64,000 nucleotides of DNA. Source: Malassezia japonica. Lineage: Eukaryota > Basidiomycota > Malasseziomycetes > Malasseziales > Malasseziaceae. The position numbers and the translations under genes are program-made. Below are positions 52,876-64,000 of this stretch, piece by piece. A model generated the notes under the pieces. That model was not told where the DNA came from, did no database searches, and saw only the letters and a list, made by a program, of their open reading frames with translations. The stretch spans positions 186,001-250,000 of the forward strand of contig NC_083375.1 in assembly GCF_029542785.1 (NCBI RefSeq), in the 5' to 3' direction. Position 1 is the stretch's first letter; the number at the start of each line of letters is the position of its first letter.

Positions 52876-53595
52876 CTACTCGTCAGAGGCAGTCGCCTTG
52901 CGCTGCTTCAGCGTCGTGGCAGGCGCGCTCTTCTCGGCCAGCGGCGCCTCGGGGACCGGGATCTTGGGCGCGGCTTGTTGCGCTTTCTCGTCCATATCCA
53001 GCACAGGGTCCTTTACAAAGAGCTCGCGGCAGTAGGCGCCAACCAGCGACAGGACACGACCACAGACCGTGGTCCAGACCGTGGTGCTCACCGCACCGAT
53101 GGGGGCCTTGGGGAAGCTAAAGAGGTAGCCAAGGGGCCCGAACCAGTCGCCGGGAGGGAGGAAGAACATGGGTGTCGTGCTGAAGTAGGACGAAATAATC
53201 GTAGGGATCGCCATGTTCAGCACAAACATAAACACCTTGAACAGAATCGAAAAGAAGAACTGCGACGAGGAAATCGTCTTGTCTGGGTCAGCCAGGCAAC
53301 GCACTCTGTTCTTCCACCTCGGCCGTGAGCTTGTCAACCTTGCGGCGCAGCTTCGCCCACTTCGAAAACTCGTCCTGCGAGCTCGTCATGTTCAACTGCT
53401 GCCGCGTCTCAAAGAGCTCCTTCTTCGCGGTCGACAGGCGCTTGAACGCAGCCCGGTTCACGATCCGCTGGTAAATCTTGTACAACTGCGTAAGCGAGGG
53501 GCACATACAAAGTCCTGCAGCGTGTCGCGGCCCAGCCATGTAATGGTCTGGTTCACGAGCGACACCAGGAAAATAAGTAGCGCGGGGTGCATCAT
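52876..53595 (-). CDS. GET1: GET1/WRB, ER receptor subunit for tail-anchored protein insertion
   Basis: Three exons (53509-53595, 53305-53485, 52876-53282) over 23- and 22-nt introns; 224 aa. Get1 with Get2 receives tail-anchored proteins from Get3 at the ER. The first transmembrane helix is PALLIFLVSLVNQTITWLG; the cytosolic coiled coil, assembled across exons, is LYKIYQRIVNRAAFKRLSTA and ELFETRQQL..KWAKLRRKVDKL; two more hydrophobic segments follow (FFSILFKVFMFVLNMAIPTI, PLGYLFSFPKAPIGAVSTTV). The last 40 residues are polar and variable. Size and topology are those of fungal Get1. It is tandem with the downstream-lying DUG3 gene upstream of it on the same strand. Confidence 0.92.
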
Positions 53596-53673
53596 GGTGG
53601 TACCGGGGAGTCGCGTCGATCGACGACGTGGGCGAATTCGGCAAATTCCCTCCACAAAAATGGACCCTTTGGA

Positions 53674-55049
53674 TTAAATGGCTACGGTGCGTGCGCAAGT
53701 CTCCAGCGGCATGTCTTGCGCCGCACCCAGGTAGGGTGACTCGGTGGGGATGTCTTCGCGGATCTCGGGAGGGATTTGGGCATTGGAATGGAACCCTGCA
53801 CGCATAGCAAAGTTGGGGTCGCGGACGTGAGGGTGCGATTGAGGATTGTGGTACTCGTCCACAATGGGGTATTGGAGCACATTCATGTTGGGGGTAATGC
53901 ACAAAATCGTATTCGACTCGATCTCCATCCAGTCGGCTAATCGTCAGTAGGAGGAACATACCTTTTTCAAACGTCAGCGGCTCACTCGCGACCACAACAA
54001 TCTTTTGACGACGGTCCGCCTTGACCATACGGTAGGCGCCTTCCGAATGCTCATAAAAGGAGGTGCCCGTGGAAAAGTACTGGATTAGAGAGACAACGCA
54101 CCAGGCTCGCCGCCTCATCCACTTTGCTTGAAACATAACGTGTGCACACAATGCTCTTGCCATCTGTCACACAAAAGTTCATCAAGCTCGGCTGCGTAAG
54201 ACACCTCACGCACCTCTTCAATGCCGGCCTCTTTCGACCATTGGTTAATGTCGCGAATGGTCATCAGGACCGCATCCTTCAGCTCTTTGTAGCTGAACTC
54301 TTCCATACTCGATGGGTTCTTCAGATGACTCAAAAAGAGCGCAAAGGTGAACTCAGAGTCCGTGTGCCCTTGCGGCCAGAGGAACAAGGGCTCGGGCAGC
54401 GCGGCCAACAGGCGCCGCTTGATTTTGGAAAACTGCGAGATCTGGCCGTTGTGCATCCTGTGATTAGTGGGTGTACGTACCACATTAACCGTCCATACCG
54501 CCAGGGGTGACAGTTGGTCTCACTCAGAGCACCAGCCGTCGAGGCACGGACATGACCACTGGAGGTTAGCATGCACTCCGAGGGTCCACTTACAAAACGA
54601 GAGGACTCTTGATCTTCTCTGCAATGCGGTGGAGATTCACATTGTTCCAGGCCTGGTGTGAGCACATTTTGCGGAGACACACATACAGGTGTGACACTAG
54701 TAAAAATGCACGGCGCTTCGCCCAACTCAGGGTCCCAGCTCGAGTCGTACCAACCCACGCCGAAACCATCTCCCTGAACAGAATATTAGCATCCAAACCA
54801 CTAAAGAACACCACACATACGTTAATGGGTCGGTTCATATCGATACGCAGGCGAGAATCAAACGCCTAGAGCCATGTGTTAGTTCTCCGCTTGATAACGT
54901 CGACAAGTCTTACCTGGTTGATAATACTGTGCGCAGGCCTCGTAAGGAGGTGCGAAAGTAGAATCGGCTCTGTGCCTTTAAAGACTGCATTCAAGTTAGC
55001 ATTTCGCCCCGGCCCAAGTTGGTTACCACTCACCCAGCAGCCGGCACAT
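53674..55049 (-). CDS. DUG3: Glutamine amidotransferase DUG3 (glutathione-degradation complex)
   Basis: Ten exons on the minus strand: 55034-55049, 54914-54984, 54821-54865, 54687-54773, 54594-54652, 54481-54558, 54214-54457, 54102-54191, 53962-54079, 53674-53936; 356 aa. Class-II amidotransferase hallmarks: MCRLL with the N-terminal catalytic cysteine at position 2, GDGFGVGWYD, HVRASTAG, NCHPW and WMHNGQI. Dug3 with Dug2 cleaves the gamma-glutamyl bond of glutathione in the cytosol. C-terminal NTILCITPNMNVLQYPI fits the family. Introns are 49, 48, 47, 34, 35, 23, 22, 22 and 25 nt from 5' to 3', longest near the AT-rich core that lies about 100 bp upstream of the start. It is the left flank of the putative centromere. 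Confidence 0.93.
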
Positions 55050-55130
55050 GTTGTATCGTGGAAAGTCTGAGGCTACTCCACAAGACAGGCAACCGGCTCA
55101 AGCACTGTGTAATCAAGGGGCAATTGGTAA

Positions 55131-55580
55131 GCCATAACAAGAAATTTTAAAACTATATAATAATATCAATGTATTCATTAACTATTTTATTTACACTAAC
55201 AGTCAAATAGATTGCATTTAACGATAAATACAATATTTATTATATATAAATCGAACATTCATTTATTATGAAACAAATAAATTTAATAGAAGCAATAGAT
55301 GAACATATCAAATTAGGTATTGATATATAATATACATTAATCATTTACATTCAACTTAGTAATTTAAATAAATATTTATTGATTTAAATGGATATAAGAC
55401 CTAGACGAAGCCTATACTATGTATTATTATTAATAAAACTTTTAAACAAACAAATAATATATCAAATACATATATAAACATATATGTATAATAATCAAAT
55501 CCAATATTTGCAAATGTTGACTAATGTTTTGTTTTGTTTATCTATATTTATGAAATAAATAAAATAGTTTCCTAGTACTT
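55131..55580. other. Putative centromere core (AT-rich island)
   Basis: By hand count, 73 of the 420 bases at 55141-55560 are G or C (17%), against 55-65% in most of the window. The island is made of words such as TATATA, AAATA, TTTATT and CAAAT; AATATTTATT occurs exactly at 55232-55241 and 55371-55380. It lies between divergent promoters and carries no gene. Malassezia centromeres are reported to be short regions with an AT-rich core of roughly 500-800 bp at a GC trough and repeated short AT-rich motifs; this island fits. An AT-rich replication origin or mere promoter spacer are alternatives. Confidence 0.65.
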
Positions 55581-55628
55581 ATGAATTCGTTTCTTTTTTT
55601 GCTTCAGTTTGACTTCCTGGTCTGTTAT

Positions 55629-55634
55629 CACGTG
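55629..55634. promoter_or_regulatory. CACGTG beside the AT-rich core (within ATCACGTG)
   Basis: The octamer ATCACGTG (55627-55634) matches the budding-yeast CDEI consensus RTCACRTG and lies at the edge of the AT-rich island and 115 bp upstream of the IDO start. Because CACGTG is common in promoters in this window, a promoter role is more likely than a centromeric one. Confidence 0.35.
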
Positions 55635-55748
55635 TTATAGAGAGAGTAGTTGTCTGATTGCGCCACCCGGCTGATTGAGGTGCGGGGGCGGGGCCGGGCC
55701 CTGGGAAAAAAATCAGAGTTGGCAGGAACACCTTCTCGTCCGCCCAAG

Positions 55749-57494
55749 ATGCCAACTTCGGAGATCCAGCCTGGCCACTTCCTTGCGCGCTCGCCTGCGC
55801 CTGCATGCGATGCGAGTGAGTGTGGGCAGACTGTTCAGGACAGCTCTTCGGGCAGTGCCAGGGAGATTCTTGCTGGCTTGAGCCGCATGATGCCCAAGGC
55901 TGCTTATACCCCATCAACCCCCGAGAGCCGACCTGATACCTCGACGTTGGCGGCAGCTGACTTCGATGTTGATGTTCGCTCTGGTTTTCTGCCTCCGGAG
56001 CCGCCTCTGGAGCGTCTTCCGGGTCCCTCATATGACGTGCAGCACACTACGTACGACTCAGCGGAGCCTTCCCTGTGGGAGTCCATGTTTGACTGGGCCA
56101 AGTCGATTCCGCTTGAAGTGGGAGCCAAATACACGGACAACTCGCGCGCAGAGGAGGCACGTCGCTGGCGCCGTGCGGTCCGCGCCATGCCTGTAGTTCC
56201 GCTTAGCGACCAGGAACTTGGCCATATCCGGACAGCCCGTCGTGCCTGTCTTGTTTTGGCTTTCTTGTCGCACCTGTATATGCATGCCCAGCCTGACGTG
56301 GGCCAATACGAAGCAGACGTGGACAAAGCAGCCGCGATTGCAGCTGAAGCGGCCCCCGCGCCCAAGGCTTGGTATGACTTTTGGTCGACCGAAGACGCCG
56401 AGGCCTCTGCGGAAGCCCGCGGCGAGTACGTCGGGCGCCTTCCTGGCTGTCTTGCAACCCCACTCCAGATTGTCAGTGAGCATCTGGGCCTACCCCCCGT
56501 GCTCACCTATGCTACCACCGTCCTGTGGAACTGGACGCTTAAGGACCCCTCGGCTGGCCTCGTTGCCGACAACATGCAAATCAAGGAGACTTTCACAGCG
56601 ACCTCGTCTGAAGCTCACTTTTACTTGATCTCGCTCTTAATTGAGTTACAGGGTGTGGAAGCCTTGACGCTGATGCGTATCTCGCTCAATGAAGCCTTTG
56701 CAGTGGACGAGCTCGCAGAGAAGCGCATTGCCTGCTACCTAGAAGAGCTGGCTGGTATCATTCGCAAGCTGACCAAACTCCTGGGCGAGATGTACCCCGG
56801 ATGTGATCCCAATGCATTCTACTGGCAAATCCGCCCTTGGTTCCGGGCGGGCGATGCTACCTACAGCATGCAAGAGTCGAACCGTGGGACAGGCTGGTTC
56901 CTGGAAAGCCAAGCCTCGGAGCCCGAACACTCGATGTGGACTGGTCCGAGTGCTGGCCAAAGCACGCTTATCCATGCTCTTGATCTTTTCTTGGACGTGG
57001 ATCACGCACGCACCAAGCGGCCTAAAGACGGAGAGGCTGCGCCGGATACCCGCCCCGCATCCGATGCAACCTTTATGGAGCGCATGCAGATGTACATGCC
57101 GCTGTATCACCGTGCTTTCTTGCGCCACCTCCAGCATGGCATTAGCACCGAGCCTGCGGTGGGCCCTCCCCGGGAGGGTGCGGAGCCAGAATCCTCGGAC
57201 CACCCGATTCGTGCGCTGGTTCTTCGGTGCCGTTGGGCGGGTGAAGACCACCCCTTGGTCAAGGCGTACGACGAGGCGCTTCGTGCGCTTCGTTCGTTGC
57301 GTGACGAGCACATGCGTATTGCGATGCAATACATCGTCAAGCCTGCTCGTGCAGGTCCCCCTAACGCCAAGCGTTCTGCGGCGCCCAAAGATGGCGAGAT
57401 CCGCGGCACAGGCGGTACGGCACTAGTCTCTTTCCTGAGCGATTGCCGCAAAAATACGACAGACGCCATGGTCGAGCGTATGCGTCGTGCGTAA
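55749..57494 (+). CDS. BNA2: Indoleamine 2,3-dioxygenase family protein (BNA2-like)
   Basis: Single exon, 581 aa from ATG 55749 (MPTSEIQPGHF). IDO/Bna2 opens the indole ring of tryptophan to N-formylkynurenine, the first step of de novo NAD synthesis. Motifs: PPVLTYATTVLWNWTLKDPS, ETFTATSSEAHFYLISLLIE, the GCDPNAFYWQIRPWFRAGDA block, a region DEHMRIAMQYIVKPAR that contains the likely proximal haem histidine, and RGTGGTALVSFLSDCRKNT near the end. It is longer than typical fungal IDO (about 400-500) because of a disordered 90-residue N-terminus and an insertion around residues 420-450. It is the right flank of the AT-rich core; GC is about 56%, lower than genes at the left of the window. Confidence 0.9.
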   Translation: MPTSEIQPGHFLARSPAPACDASECGQTVQDSSSGSAREILAGLSRMMPKAAYTPSTPESRPDTSTLAAADFDVDVRSGFLPPEPPLERLPGPSYDVQHTTYDSAEPSLWESMFDWAKSIPLEVGAKYTDNSRAEEARRWRRAVRAMPVVPLSDQELGHIRTARRACLVLAFLSHLYMHAQPDVGQYEADVDKAAAIAAEAAPAPKAWYDFWSTEDAEASAEARGEYVGRLPGCLATPLQIVSEHLGLPPVLTYATTVLWNWTLKDPSAGLVADNMQIKETFTATSSEAHFYLISLLIELQGVEALTLMRISLNEAFAVDELAEKRIACYLEELAGIIRKLTKLLGEMYPGCDPNAFYWQIRPWFRAGDATYSMQESNRGTGWFLESQASEPEHSMWTGPSAGQSTLIHALDLFLDVDHARTKRPKDGEAAPDTRPASDATFMERMQMYMPLYHRAFLRHLQHGISTEPAVGPPREGAEPESSDHPIRALVLRCRWAGEDHPLVKAYDEALRALRSLRDEHMRIAMQYIVKPARAGPPNAKRSAAPKDGEIRGTGGTALVSFLSDCRKNTTDAMVERMRRA

Positions 57495-57556
57495 TTGTAT
57501 CTATTTGGGTTGTAGTGTAGGACCGTTCTGCGGTATGAATTAGAAATGTACAGTGT

Positions 57557-59361
57557 CTATTTCCTCGCAAAGCGCAGTGCGTCGGCCAAAGCACTCCGCT
57601 GCTGCGCCAACCACGATGTCCCATTCGACGGCGTCGAGGGCGCAGAAGGAGAAATATTGCCGACCGGTGCACGCGGCGTGTCCTCGCCTTGCGGAAGGGC
57701 AGGCGTCATAAGCTGTTCCCAGCTTGTTTCGCGGTACACTCGCTGGCTGAGCATTTGGTATGCAGAAGACATTAGGCGCAATTCTTGGCGCAGTGCATCG
57801 CGTTCACGCTGTGATTAGCAGAAAGACATACCTGAACAGCCTGGACTGCTGCATCGGACGTAGGCGTAGCATCCTGGCGCAGCTGGTTCGCGCGGTCCCA
57901 GCACTCGGACAATCGCTGCATAACAACATCGTCCAGCTGGAAAGACTCCGTGAGGAGGTCAAGCACAGGACGAAACTCTTTTGGTGTAGATTTGCCGGAG
58001 CCATTCTTGCCCTTGTCCGAGCTGTATTTTTTCGCGAGCTTCCGCAGGAGGGCCCTGGTGTAAGATGGACAACATACTGTGCTTCTTTTTCCTTGGAACG
58101 CGCATTATTACGCATTGCTGTGATTTCCGCATGGACAGCCGCTAGGCTAGATTCCCGGCTTTCAATCGAGTCCGGTGCTTCCTGAGCGGATTGTCTTGAG
58201 GAAGACGGCGCAGTGGACATCTCCAGCTTCTGCTGCAAGTCGGAGATTTCGCCGCGCAGAGTGGCAATTGTGTCTGGGTCGTGAGCCTCTCGGTCGGTCT
58301 TAACCGAGCCATCATGGACATCAAGAGCCTGCACACGGTCCATGAGGCCCTTCATTTGCGTCTGGTCCGCTTTGTGGTCTGCTTCTAAGGCATCGCAACG
58401 GGCTTGGAGTCGCTGCTTGTCGCTCTCGAGCGTTGTGTATTCTTCCTGCAGACTCGTGTAACGACGCTCAATGTGTTTTGAACGCTCATCTGCTTCCGTC
58501 GACCGAGAACCAACCGTGGTCTTGAGGTCCTGTTCACTGGAACGCAGATCCTGCAGTTCACGCTGCAAGTCACTTGTCTCTTCTAGACGCGACCTGTACT
58601 TTTCGATCTGTGCCTCCTGACGCTTGCTTTGCTCAATAATGGGACGCCATTCGTCCAGCTGGTCGCGGAATGTATCGCGCTCACGCTCGCTGTCACGAAG
58701 CCCTGGCAAGACAGCGTTCATCTCTTTGTTTTCCTCAGTGAGACGCTCAATCTGCGCCTCGGCACTAGCCAATTGGTCTTGGTGCAAGTTGACCAGCTCG
58801 GTCTTTTTCGCGAGCTCACGGCGCATGTTTTCGAGCTCGCGCAGGTTCATGTCCGTCGATGTGTCAGGTGCTGCTTCCACCTCTTCTGCTTCCTGCGGCG
58901 CTTGTAAAGTAGCTAGCACCGACTCAATTACACGCATTAGCACCATCTGGTCGGCATACGGCAAGGACTGCATTGCACTGATCTGCGCATCATTATCAGG
59001 GCTTTTGGCAATCGCACCGAGTACCAACCGCATTAGCTTAGCAAGCTCCTCTTCCGCGGGTGGCTTCCGCCCCGCGGCCTTGGTATCCACTTTTGGGAGC
59101 TCTTGGTCGACATTAAGTACATCGTCATAGTACCGCACCAGTCGCTTGTACAACACGTCGAGCGTTGGTTTTTTCGGCGCACGAAAATGCTGTGTGTCAC
59201 TGCGTTAGCGATGCAACCTACAGAGCAGAGAGCACTTCGAACAAAGCACCGGGACTCGTTAGGATCTCGTCATTTTGAGACGTGCGCTTGGTGAGGACAC
59301 GGAGCCAAGACGCGATCGCCGCGAGCTGCGTGCTATCACCTGGCGCCTCTTCGGCGTCCAT
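57557..59361 (-). CDS. hok1: HOOK-family dynein/kinesin adaptor of early endosomes
   Basis: Four exons (59222-59361, 58078-59199, 57832-58054, 57557-57808) over 22-, 23- and 23-nt introns; 578 aa. Hook proteins link early endosomes to dynein and kinesin-3. N-terminal globular (calponin-homology-like) HOOK domain: STQLAAIASWLRVLTKRTSQ, then VLSALDTQHFRAPKKPTLDV and RLVRYYDDVL. A central coiled coil of about 280 residues follows (LRELENMRRELAKKTELVNL...). The C-terminal part (RQELRLMSSAYQMLSQRVYR then SWLAQQRSAL) is the cargo-adaptor end typical of fungal Hook. Its start is 54 bp from the Kozak-favoured start of the divergent gene. Confidence 0.88.
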
Positions 59362-59415
59362 CAGCGTCCAGCGTCAACGATGTGGAGGGATCGGCACGGC
59401 CGAGTTGTCTCCACC

Positions 59416-60201
59416 ATGGCGGGGCCTGAGGGGGAGAACGAGGAGCGTTTCTGGTCGCTGATTCTCGATCTTTCCGCCCAGCTCACTGCCAACAGGCAAG
59501 CGAGCGATAACCTGAAGAACCAGATCAGCGACCTTCAAGGCCAGGCGGTGCATGCCAAGAGCGGCTACGCGCTACGCCGGTTTAATGTCGACCTCTCCCA
59601 GGAGGCCTTCACCACAGAGCTCGAGCGGCTCAATGTACAGTTGATGCAGGAGAATACCACGCTTGCGCACGAATCCAAGCAGCTTGGTGCACTACTGCGT
59701 GAGTGCGAAGCGACGCTCGAAACCGTCATGGGCAAGTTCCGCAGCTTTTCGCATGCCGCACAACAATATGGCCTAGACTTGTCGGCATACTACGAGTCCC
59801 GTATCGAGGGACAGACTGAACAGTTGGATGCTATCCAGCGCCAAGAATATAGCGGGCGTGACGCAGCAGTGGGTCGGCTTGGCACGCTTGTGCGTAGCGC
59901 GCTTCGTCTCGTTGACGGTGAAGATGAGGAGGCGAACGGAAGCACCGCACTCGAACGTACCACCGAGATCGAGCAGCTCCGTGCGGAGAATGAAATGCTC
60001 CGCTCCCTTCTTGGTATGGGAAACTCTCCTAAGGAAGAATCTGAAGTGCCGGTGCGCACGGCTGATCTCCCCGCGACGCGCGCCGAGGTTGCTACTGCGG
60101 AGCCTCTCACGCGTGCACCGATTGACGAAGTCGATGTAGGAGGGGCTTCAGACATTCCCCCACCCGATACGGACGAGATGACACAACTTCCTAGTACATA
60201 G
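59416..60201 (+). CDS. SIKE/FGFR1OP2-like coiled-coil protein (STRIPAK component)
   Basis: Single exon, 261 aa from ATG 59416, which has an excellent context (CCACCATGGC); an in-frame ATG at 59380 would add 12 residues. The core coiled coil LERLNVQLMQENTTLAHESK and QLGALLRECEATLETVMGKF then RSFSHAAQ matches the conserved helix of the SIKE/FGFR1OP2 family. These proteins are part of STRIPAK phosphatase-kinase complexes, which control fungal cell fusion and polarity. A second coiled coil (IEQLRAENEMLRSLLGMGNS) and an acidic disordered tail follow. Assignment rests on motif resemblance. The stop is 64 bp from the stop of the convergent low-GC gene. Confidence 0.75.
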   Translation: MAGPEGENEERFWSLILDLSAQLTANRQASDNLKNQISDLQGQAVHAKSGYALRRFNVDLSQEAFTTELERLNVQLMQENTTLAHESKQLGALLRECEATLETVMGKFRSFSHAAQQYGLDLSAYYESRIEGQTEQLDAIQRQEYSGRDAAVGRLGTLVRSALRLVDGEDEEANGSTALERTTEIEQLRAENEMLRSLLGMGNSPKEESEVPVRTADLPATRAEVATAEPLTRAPIDEVDVGGASDIPPPDTDEMTQLPST

Positions 60202-60265
60202 ATGTATTCTACGGCAAGTCTGTATTCCTACGTGCTAGGTCATGAGCCTTTCAAATGACAGCTTT

Positions 60266-62979
60266 TTACTCTACGACCACAGGTCCTTTGAGCTCGATTG
60301 TGAATCGTTTTGGCTGAGATTCCTTGGTTTCCTTGGACCCTTGATGAGTTTGAATTTTCAAAGTGAAGTCATGCGGCTCGACGCCGCGATCTCCAAACTA
60401 GAATGAGAAATCCCAGTTGGCTACGCACCGCCCTCTTCACCTTCCGTTCAATTGAGCGATGGGCTGCCTTTAGCTGTCGCCGGAGTCCAATCATGACTGG
60501 ATCTGCTATTAATGCACCATGACATACGACAATAGGCTGCAATATAGTTGGATCTTTGTGTTTCCCAGTTGCCCTTCCAGATGCGATAGGCGAATAGCCA
60601 GTCATCTGTAACCTGGAGAGTTTGAATCAGTCGGTAGGTTTCATATGGAGATTCAAACGGGCCCTTTTCCAGTCTAGAGTCATGAGTCCAACGAAACCCA
60701 CATACACTTTATTGATATCGGCTTCTGTCACGTCAAGTTCCTCAGCAAGATCAGATATGGACATGTTCATAATGATCTGCTTCGAACGAACGACGTCGAC
60801 AAACCCTGTAGAGAGAGACTGGGCTCGAATCCAATCCACTTCCCTCTCCAGCTGGTCTCGATCTTCTTTTTGTTTTCCTTGGGACTTCTTGCTGGGACCT
60901 GAATCATTGTCGGATTCTACCAAGACTCCTGTAAACTTGAGAGACAGAACCTTGGCAATAGGTTTAAGGTTTTCGGTCAATTTCCACTCCCAAACCAAGT
61001 CCTGGAAATGGGGAGTCCTTCGGTTCTGTTCCCCGTGCGCATATTTGGCACGTAACCCTTTGATAATATTAGGGCCTTGATAGACGAGCATTTCATTCAG
61101 TGTTTGAGTCACTCTAGCTTTGGTTATCCGAGAAACGCACGTTTTGATCCTGGATCACAATAACCTTTGAACACCAAGAACTTCTCTAGTAATTCCCAGT
61201 AGCAGTGCCCAGACTTGAAGTACATTTTTTGTAGCAGCTTTACAGCATTCTCCGATTGCGTTTGGTGATCATCTGATCTACATCAGCGTGAGCTTGAAGG
61301 TACTACTTACGTTTCATTTGTCTCCTGGGCAGCCTTGAGCATAACCATAAACCTCGAAAGGATATCCATGGGGGCAGTACGAAAAGAGAGAGTACAAGTT
61401 CACAGCCCAAACTGTGCCGCAAAAAAGGAACCGATCATGAAATAAATGAGAAGGTTTCGCAATCACATCTACTCTGGAGTGGGATTGTGTCATTACCTAT
61501 AGACTCTATTCGGAAAACAGGTGTCTAAGTTGTGTGACACATCGGTTTGGGGTTTTGACGAGAGGCTCGGAGAAGATGTAGCTTCCGGCTTCGAGAAATT
61601 GTCTCCGAAGTTGATCCAAATCTGTATTGTCTTTTCAATCTTTCGGATATTCCAAACAAAGTTCCCCTTCTTCAAGGTTGGCATGGCATTCTACTGTCAG
61701 AAGTAGATCAAATACGTACTAAGTCGCATACAAAGCTGAGTATTGGCCCAGAGTTCTTCATCATGCACTCGCGAGCACCTTTTATTCTTGGATCTGGTCA
61801 TTAGGACAAGAATAACCCACCATCGTAGCTCTTTCTTCCCGAGCTGTGCTCCGCTTGATGCCACTTGTTGAGGATAAATCTGATGAGCTGGGCATCGTGA
61901 CTAAGTCGGAACACAACGATGAGATCCACCAAGCGATAAAAGTCGCCCAAATGATCAGTAAAAGCTCTGCAGGTCAGAAACACTCTTCTACTCCGGACTC
62001 ACTGAAGAATATCCGGAACATCGCGCTCTTCGTAGCATTGCCCTAAGAGCCCAGTTTTCACTTTTACACCGCGCCGTAAAACAGCTTCACAGAAGCCTTC
62101 TAGTACCTCTCGTTCGTATACATCTTCAGACTCCGGCTGTATCATGCCAACTTGATTTTCTTGGGTTCGCTCTTTCCTTGATGGTCGACTTTGATAATCA
62201 AGGAGTAGCGGCGTCTCTAGGATAATCTGAGGTTCGGTGCTCTGAATACGATTGCAGAAAACCTTGCCCGTCCACTGGTTGGGGTCGAGTACATATGGCC
62301 CTGCCAAAGCCTCCATCTGCTTGATCATCCATGCGCTTTGTTGGTCTAATTTATTCTGAAGAAGACGGATAGCAGGCGCTTTGTTAGTGAGGTAGCTTAC
62401 GGATCATCGGCCGATCGAAGAATGCTGTTCTCTTATGCAACGCGTACATGGAATGAACGAGCGTCTTCGTATTTAGGTGGGCATTCGTGGTCTTGACGAG
62501 TGCTTTTACTTCAGACACAGTTGGCAAGGACGAAGCAGATAAGCTAAAGTAAGGCAGATTACCTACATTTCGCTCAACCTCTCGCTTTCGATTCTTGTGG
62601 CTAGATCCAGACGAAATCTGCTCGGCTTTGCATTGAGCGATTTGTTGAGCGACTCGTAAAAACTGAGCGCAATAGCTTCCACCAGTGCACTGTACATCAT
62701 GAAATGACTCTAAGAAGGATTTGGTTTGTAGCTGCAGTAGCCCAGTGACTGGTTTGCACTGCCACAAGAGATGTGCCCAGACCTATTCAATTTCTGGCCT
62801 TGATCACATCTCCTTTCGAGTCTGTTCGTCGTAGGCGTATCCGATTAGTACTCGACCTGAATTCGGCTGGATCAAATCCTTCGAAGGAAGCAGCTATCCC
62901 TTTCTATTAGGTCAACGCGAGACCAGAGCGAACCAGTCCTTCGTACGTGACGCCATCGAGACAAAGAAACGGCCGTCAT
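60266..62979 (-). CDS. Unrecognised 779-aa protein encoded by 14 exons in low-GC DNA
   Basis: A phase-consistent model on the minus strand: exons 62947-62979, 62808-62903, 62401-62782, 62003-62378, 61821-61966, 61720-61793, 61497-61690, 61381-61473, 61311-61352, 61141-61277, 60706-61117, 60528-60673, 60429-60505, 60266-60397; introns 22-43 nt. All joins keep frame and total 780 codons. Exon 8's end is the least sure: another GTACTC donor nearby also fits. Start MTAVSLSRWRHKGIAASFEG; later QAFTDHLGDFYRLVDLIVVF, NFVWNIRKIEKTIQIWINFG, a possible winged-helix-like SISDLAEELDVTEADINKVL, and an end KPKRFTIELKGPVVVE-like. Mostly helical, soluble. No family recognised, no transposase or polymerase motif. 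GC is near 45%, far below the neighbours, and intron density is much higher. Confidence 0.6.
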
Positions 62980-63191
62980 TAAATAGAAATACCTAGACAC
63001 AAAGAAGGGAAAATTGACAAGTACGCTAATGACCCTATTCAATGCCACATAATTGATCCTAGTTCGTTTGCTAGATACCCAACGCAGCGCGCCATACTCC
63101 GTCTGTTGGACGCCCCTGGGGCTTCCACCTTCGATGCCCTGGCCAACTTAGTCAGCACATGGCCCGTGGGTTCGTCTTTACCGCTTTCGTC

Positions 63192-63730
63192 ATGACCCCG
63201 GAAACCCCTACGCAGCACGAGCTCGAAGTGTTTCTCGACAAGCTCCGCTTGGCCAAGGCCAAGAGCAACTTGACGTTTGCCGACCTTGCTGAAAAGCTCG
63301 AGCGTGACGAGCTCTACGTCGCGGCCATGTACGTCACTCTACTCACACCAGCTTCTATGGCCAAGCGAAGCCCGAGAAAAAGGATCTTGACAAGATTAAC
63401 GAGGCCCTTAGCATCAATTGGACCGAGAACTATCTCGGCAAGGATTACTTCCCTACCCGTGCCGGCCTTGACAAAATCCCCCCCGAGGGTACGTAGCTAG
63501 GCTAACCCAGACCCTGTCCTGTATCGTCTGTACGAGGCTCTCATGGTGTACGGCCGCCCGATCAAGCACATTATTAACGAAAAGGTACGTTCCTTTGCTC
63601 ATGGCAGTTCGGTGATGGTATCATGAGCGCCATCGACTTCCGTGGCCACGTCGAGCGTGTAGAGGACCCCAACGGCCCTCGCGTCAAGATCACGCTGGAC
63701 GGAAAGTTCCTGCCCTACCGTCGCTGGTAA
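63192..63730 (+). CDS. Cyanate hydratase (cyanase)
   Basis: Four exons (63192-63328, 63352-63488, 63511-63584, 63608-63730) over introns of 23, 22 and 23 nt give exactly 156 aa, the size of bacterial and fungal cyanases. Cyanase converts cyanate and bicarbonate to ammonia and carbon dioxide. The N-terminal helical domain ([20 protein letters not shown]) precedes the catalytic domain: [19 protein letters not shown] supplies the Arg and Glu and DGIMSAIDF the Ser of the active site; the end [10 protein letters not shown] is canonical. An in-frame ATG at 63159 would add 11 residues; 63192 gives the usual start. Divergent from the low-GC gene. Confidence 0.95.
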
Positions 63731-63841
63731 ATAGCTAAGCATCTGCTACAGCTTCCAACTCCCTCTCCCGCACCGACGGAAGGCGTGCACGGATGCACTT
63801 TACCGAGGCGTCCCAGCCCATATTTCGTGTGGAGGCAGCTC

Positions 63842-63847
63842 CACGTG
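63842..63847. other. CACGTG in a 3' flank
   Basis: This copy lies between two convergent stop codons rather than in a promoter and shows that the hexamer also occurs by chance. Confidence 0.3.
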
Positions 63848-63868
63848 GGAAATATCTGTACATTGGGT

Positions 63869-64000
63869 CTATACACCTTCGCGTTTGACGAGCTCCCACT
63901 CGACGCGTAGCAGTACCCATGCGCTTCTGCGTACGAGTTCTAGCGCCTCGAGCATGAGCAGACCACGCTGCCACTCCACCAAATATTGCAGGTGGGAGCT
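63869..64000 (-). CDS. EXS-domain membrane protein, C-terminal fragment (ERD1/SYG1 family)
   Basis: Partial: the gene enters from the right edge and ends at a TAG (63869-63871 on the + strand). The visible 43 codons encode HLQYLVEWQRGLLMLEALEL then VRRSAWVLLRVEWELVKREG, which matches the end of the EXS domain (pattern LE..RR..W...R.E.E). EXS proteins include Erd1, a Golgi protein for phosphate recycling and glycosyltransferase retention, and the Syg1/XPR1 phosphate exporters. Ending only a few residues after the motif is more like Erd1. The assignment rests on a short fragment. Confidence 0.6.
   Translation of the reverse strand, partial: SSHLQYLVEWQRGLLMLEALELVRRSAWVLLRVEWELVKREGV

What the first reader, a model, noticed from the sequence alone, without database searches (positions are those of the whole stretch)
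55131..55580. Candidate regional/short centromere core: a 450-bp island of about 17% GC
Direct count gives 73 G/C in 420 bases at 55141-55560, while surrounding DNA is 50-65% GC. The change is abrupt, the island is gene-free, contains repeated AT words (for example AATATTTATT twice), and sits inside a broader dip in GC (about 53.6-63 kb). Short AT-rich centromere cores at GC troughs are established for Malassezia; that this particular island is one is inference.
Basis: partly seen in the sequence, partly recalled or inferred. Interest (0 to 1): 0.85.

Follow-up and report, generated by a model that had tools for sequence, protein, structure and literature searches.

The report
Predicted Malassezia chromosome-6 centromere core
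The short AT-rich patch is very probably the centromere core of one chromosome of a skin yeast, one of nine such patches (one per chromosome), and it was already predicted in print, so it is real and well supported but not new.

Summary
Window 55134-55600/55615 is an island of 17.8-18.5% GC in DNA of about 65% GC; in the 150 kb around it no other 450-bp window falls below 38.7%. The interpretation also holds. The window lies on contig 6 of a nine-contig, 8.43-Mb assembly; contig 6 has telomere-type repeats at both ends. Pattern searches of the whole genome find one such island on each of nine contigs (412-514 bp, 17.8-21.1% GC). Of 23 other AT-run sites, 22 were fetched and none resembles them. 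On seven of nine contigs the island lies within 1.6 kb of a centromere predicted for Malassezia japonica (PMC7025860, Table 4); this one is that paper's CEN6. CENP-A-, CENP-C- and Mis12-like genes are present. The core lies between the divergent genes DUG3 and IDO. A word, AATAAATATT, has 8 of its 10 genome copies in the islands, but its meaning is open. I saw no kinetochore ChIP for this species, so occupancy is inferred. Verdict: ordinary for the genus and already predicted.

The parts
55134..55600 (.). AT-rich core (17.8% GC); end 55615 at 18.5% GC with a higher background
   Evidence: log-likelihood segmentation
55367..55380 (.). palindrome AATAAATATTTATT made of two overlapping AATAAATATT words; a third copy (minus strand) at 55232-55241
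   Evidence: genome pattern search, C6:241367, 241371, 241232
55180..55193 (+). arm of a 14-nt perfect inverted repeat, partner 55556-55569; possibly chance
   Evidence: the repeat finder
55556..55569 (-). second arm of that inverted repeat
   Evidence: the repeat finder
53674..55049 (-). DUG3-like glutamine amidotransferase, ten exons, 356 aa, ATG at 55049, 84 bp from the core
   Evidence: hand-spliced model; 87% identical over 94% to the M. vespertilionis protein
55749..57494 (+). indoleamine 2,3-dioxygenase (IDO), first ATG 133-148 bp from the core
   Evidence: PF01231, E 5.6e-109; start codon chosen by eye
52876..53595 (-). GET1/CHD5-like gene, split by an intron; ATG at 53595 inferred
   Evidence: PF04420 on two frames; start by eye
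53000..64000 (.). approximate broader GC dip around the core, longer on the right
   Evidence: composition

Best explanation
The island is the AT-rich core of the short regional centromere of chromosome 6 of Malassezia japonica. By analogy with its relatives, CENP-A nucleosomes would replace canonical H3 at the core, CENP-C and the Mis12/Mtw1 complex would build on them, and kinetochore proteins would cover some 3-5 kb, including the bodies of DUG3 and IDO. Shown here: the island, its singularity on the contig as far as the patterns see, a counterpart on each other contig, the match to published predicted positions, and CENP-A-, CENP-C- and Mis12-like genes in the genome. Inferred: kinetochore occupancy, the 3-5-kb extent, and the species name (from positions).
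For: Composition and uniqueness. One island on each of nine contigs; 67 of 94 rows of one pattern and 21 of 37 runs of another fall in the nine islands; 22 of 23 other sites fetched, none alike. 7 of 9 islands within 1.6 kb of published M. japonica positions; random placement reaches at most 5 within 2 kb in 20,000 trials, mean 0.75. A 583-bp window here reaches 23.5% GC against the published 23.7% over 582 bp. Same kind of core proven by ChIP in M. sympodialis and M. furfur and by H3 depletion in M. slooffiae and M. globosa (PMC7025860). CENP-C, Mis12 and CENP-A-like genes.
Against: No kinetochore binding data for this species. Only 170 kb of the 701 kb of C6 were read base by base; a second island at 25-30% GC could be missed by the patterns in 25-58% of cases. 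Islands on C1 and C8 do not match a published position directly. No protein named M. japonica was among the listed hits of IDO or DUG3. The published motif could not be tested.
Confidence: 0.93

Rival explanations
1. The island is only an AT-rich divergent promoter or spacer between DUG3 and IDO, with no centromere role.
For: It fills the gap between two divergent genes.
Against: No other 450-bp window, intergenic or not, in 150 kb is below 38.7% GC, and the genome shows one such island per contig, which promoters would not give.
Confidence: 0.02
2. The island is an inactivated former centromere, and the active centromere of chromosome 6 is elsewhere.
For: Centromere inactivation is reported in M. 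furfur (PMC7025860, passages).
Against: Reported inactivated sites lost their AT-richness, whereas this is the most AT-rich of the nine islands; no second candidate on C6 by pattern.
Confidence: 0.02
3. The islands are AT-rich replication origins, one strong origin per chromosome, or an inserted piece of mitochondrial DNA.
For: AT-richness alone fits both.
Against: One per chromosome is not expected of origins (general knowledge). For a mitochondrial insert: longest frame 34 aa under codes 1 and 4, and the islands share only short AT words with each other. Mitochondrial DNA of this species was not available to compare.
Confidence: 0.02

Closest known systems
Predicted CEN6 of Malassezia japonica JCM11963 (PMC7025860, Table 4)
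   Same: Contig number, position (centres 108 bp apart), length class and GC
   Different: Printed end coordinate 250,550 does not fit the printed length 582 (241,550 would); this is a different assembly with shifted coordinates
ChIP-mapped centromeres of M. sympodialis, M. furfur; H3-depleted centromeres of M. slooffiae, M. globosa (PMC7025860)
   Same: Single GC minimum per chromosome, AT-rich core under 1 kb between genes
   Different: Occupancy was measured there, not here; motif not testable here
Point centromeres of Saccharomyces cerevisiae (recalled, no call)
   Same: Short, AT-rich
   Different: No long conserved element common to the nine islands was found; they share short AT words

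Membership tests
Malassezia short regional centromere | AT-rich core of less than 1 kb | tested here: met
   467-482 bp, 17.8-18.5% GC
Malassezia short regional centromere | Global GC minimum of its chromosome, one per chromosome | tested here: met
   Pattern searches over all nine contigs; base-by-base scan covers only 170 of 701 kb of C6, so weaker troughs elsewhere are not fully excluded
Malassezia short regional centromere | Intergenic core | tested here: met
   Between DUG3 and IDO; longest ATG frame inside 34 aa
Malassezia short regional centromere | No long direct or inverted repeats | tested here: met
   Only 12-20-nt repeats in 54600-56200; the 5-kb flanks were not scanned
Malassezia short regional centromere | Enrichment of the published 12-bp motif | not testable with these tools
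   Matrix is in a figure; a different, de novo word count was done instead
Malassezia short regional centromere | Kinetochore protein binding over 3-5 kb and H3 depletion | not testable with these tools
   Needs ChIP
Malassezia short regional centromere | CENP-A-based kinetochore genes in the genome | tested here: met
   CENP-C, Mis12, CENP-A-like histone
Malassezia short regional centromere | Gene synteny with mapped centromeres of relatives | not tested
   Relatives' genomes not held; paper lists M. japonica CEN6 as partial
Point centromere (budding-yeast type) | Conserved elements in fixed order at every centromere | tested here: not met
   Pairwise blastn and word counts of the nine islands show only short AT words; no dedicated search for degenerate elements

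The most novel reading that the evidence does not exclude
The word AATAAATATT, doubled in this core into the palindrome AATAAATATTTATT, is a sequence cue that helps place the kinetochore, so that these regional centromeres are partly sequence-defined. 8 of its 10 genome copies lie in 5 of the 9 cores, against about 1-2.3 expected from the cores' own composition. It may be part of the published 12-bp motif, which I could not compare.
Probability: 0.1. Interest if true: 0.6.

Novelty: already known. Interest (0 to 1): 0.22.

Why it matters
It supports, in a second assembly with one contig per predicted chromosome, a published centromere prediction, and fixes the core between DUG3 and IDO. The nine islands are exact targets for a kinetochore ChIP in a species for which I saw none. 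The over-represented word gives a concrete form to the question, left open in the paper, of what the AT-rich motif does at these centromeres.

Tried and rejected
Rejected: RNA gene, coding island, mitochondrial insert, plain promoter.

Inverted repeats: 12-mers whose reverse complement recurs in the same island number 38 over the nine islands against 18.4 in dinucleotide shuffles, reached in 4 of 200; 26 of the 38 come from C5 and C6 and three islands have none, so I do not build on it.

A de novo 12-bp motif by expectation-maximisation, trained without C6, collapsed to an A/C-rich profile; column-shuffled versions peaked as high at the island in 271 of 300 trials: a failed attempt, no evidence.

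Words: AATAAATA is the top 8-mer whichever island is left out, but in the left-out island the number of shuffles reaching its count is C4 2, C6 4, C2 8, C1 10, C5 16, C8 55, C7 202, C9 245, C3 255 of 500. Against Markov models of order 4 and 5 AATAAATA is no longer clearly exceptional (44 and 32 of 400 reach 22); AATAAATATT still is (1 of 400 each). Other words have higher z (for example AGTTTTTG with 5 copies; ACAAAACAAA with 4 copies in 2 islands). The words were picked from the same islands, so these tests flatter them; the test on the maximum over 10-mers gives 3 of 300.

Not reached: the published 12-bp matrix; any relative's genome; base-by-base reading of all of C6.

Full report
Observation. 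The island is there as described: 73 of 420 bases at 55141-55560 are G or C. Segmentation gives 55134-55615 at 18.5% GC or 55134-55600 at 17.8%, depending on the background. In 450-bp windows over C6:186001-270000 it lies 7.5 SD below the mean of the rest, and over C6:150001-300000 nothing else falls below 38.7%. The longest ATG-started frame inside is 34 aa and no RNA family reaches its cut-off.

Surroundings. On the left, minus strand, is a DUG3-like glutamine amidotransferase, spliced by hand into ten exons with introns of 22-49 nt; it gives 356 aa and its ATG is 84 bp from the core. It is 87% identical over 94% of its length to the M. vespertilionis protein. Beyond it are a GET1/CHD5-like gene and a TPR/MLP1-like gene. 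On the right, plus strand, is IDO, its first ATG 133-148 bp from the core. GC is low from about 53 to 64 kb of the window, mostly to the right of the core. GC3 averages 0.61 for the 4 frames of about 250 codons or more in the dip and 0.81 for the 29 others in the 84 kb scanned (rank test p 0.004). One of the four, 53288-54163, mixes parts of two spliced genes, and a few of the 29 are as low (0.61-0.66), so this is approximate.

Genome-wide test. The window is C6:186001-250000 of an assembly of nine contigs and 8,433,779 bases. C6 has 701,388 bases and GATTAG/AATCCT arrays at its ends. G or C followed by 17 A/T occurs 37 times in the genome, 21 of them in the nine islands. A looser gapped pattern gives 94 rows: 67 in the nine islands and 27 at 13 other places. 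Islands: C1:488913-489396, C2:139685-140184, C3:350355-350809, C4:381400-381913, C5:229291-229796, C6:241134-241600, C7:260078-260489, C8:493180-493670, C9:87775-88259; 412-514 bp, 17.8-21.1% GC. C7 is the weakest: 2 rows of the gapped pattern and no 17-base run. The two patterns together hit 23 other places, of which 22 were fetched (C5:734384 was not). Their best AT segments score at most 27 bits (the widest is 225 bp at 33% GC, L032). The exception is 53 bits at the very left end of C6, where the telomere-type repeats lie. The islands score 199-254 bits. Limits: of simulated 450-bp islands the two patterns miss 3.7% at 20% GC, 25% at 25% and 58% at 30%.

Identity with a published prediction. 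Of PMC7025860 (eLife 2020;9:e53944) I read the abstract and outline, sections 8, 10, 11, 12 and 14 and passages of the rest. Centromeres were mapped by Mtw1 ChIP-seq in M. sympodialis, by CENP-A ChIP-qPCR in M. furfur and by H3 depletion in M. slooffiae and M. globosa; nine were predicted in M. japonica JCM11963 from GC troughs. Table 4 gives CEN6 as 240,968 to '250,550', length 582, 23.7% GC; an end near 241,550 fits the length. Our island centre is 108 bp from the centre of that corrected interval. On 7 of 9 contigs (C2, C3, C4, C6, C9 forward; C5, C7 reversed) the island is within 1.6 kb of a published one; random placement gives 0.75 on average and at most 5 of 9 within 2 kb in 20,000 trials. 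C1 and C8 do not match; joined scaffolds could explain that, which I did not show. Against the species name: no protein named M. japonica appears among the 120 listed hits of IDO or of DUG3; the 100% IDO match comes from a source without a name.

Kinetochore genes. CENP-C: two neighbouring pieces at C1:457483-457711, one over the cut-off. Mis12: C1:60644-61015. CENP-A-like histone: C3:904626-904961; its best solved relative is fission-yeast Cnp1 at 167 bits, the next chains, named histone H3, are at 139 bits and below (60 of 175 shown). By eye its loop-1 region is longer than in the H3 at C6:40264 (sequences).

Words. AATAAATA occurs 22 times in the nine islands, in 9 of 9, against 5.7 in dinucleotide shuffles; no 8-mer reached 22 in 300 shuffles. 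AATAAATATT occurs 10 times in the genome, 8 of them in 5 of the 9 islands, 3 in this one. WAATAAATAW occurs 24 times, 15 of them in 6 of the 9 islands. AT-rich DNA is nearly confined to the islands, so the concentration in the genome says little by itself; the excess within the islands is the signal, and for AATAAATA it fades against order-4 and order-5 models. Whether this is the published motif is unknown. The paper finds its motif in all predicted M. japonica centromeres except that of scaffold 7; here C7 has one AATAAATA, but so have C3 and C9.

Synteny. Table 3 lists M. japonica CEN6 as partially syntenic with M. sympodialis CEN3. In M. cuniculi the DUG3 hit is on a contig of 1,748,598 bases and the IDO hit on one of 1,493,642. 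In M. vespertilionis the listed contigs are 489,160 and (longest of two) 841,365, which may mix two assemblies. An exchange at or near this centromere in some lineage would fit; that is inference.

Mechanism and verdict. The ordinary account for the genus is best supported: an AT-rich core that carries CENP-A chromatin, with kinetochore proteins spreading over the adjacent genes. Shown: core, singularity within the stated limits, counterparts, published position, machinery genes. Inferred: occupancy. In four paper searches I saw no kinetochore ChIP for M. japonica; apart from PMC7025860 I saw only listings, and the library lacks most subscription journals.

Noticed in passing
PMC7025860 Table 4, M. 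japonica CEN6: Printed end coordinate 250,550 is inconsistent with the printed length 582; 241,550 would fit.
   Followed up: yes
window 60500-63000: A second GC dip (42-47%) 5-8 kb right of the core, with only short frames and no Pfam match over a cut-off among six frames scanned.
   Followed up: partly
L048:3763-5786 (C6:173763-175786): Lowest GC found outside the island in 150 kb (38.7%); a 202-aa minus-strand frame resembles by eye the neighbouring frame L048:1978-3177, perhaps a decayed tandem copy.
   Followed up: partly
window 53962-54480: DUG3 has introns of only 22-25 nt at its 3' half (hand-spliced).
   Followed up: no
C6:1-10000 and C6:691389-701388: Both chromosome ends carry GATTAG-type repeats and about 10 kb of 40-57% GC DNA.
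   Followed up: no
window 55749-57494: Among the 120 listed IDO hits the named Malassezia species are only M. psittaci, Malassezia sp. CBS 17886, M. vespertilionis and M. cuniculi; loss in other species is possible but untested.
   Followed up: no
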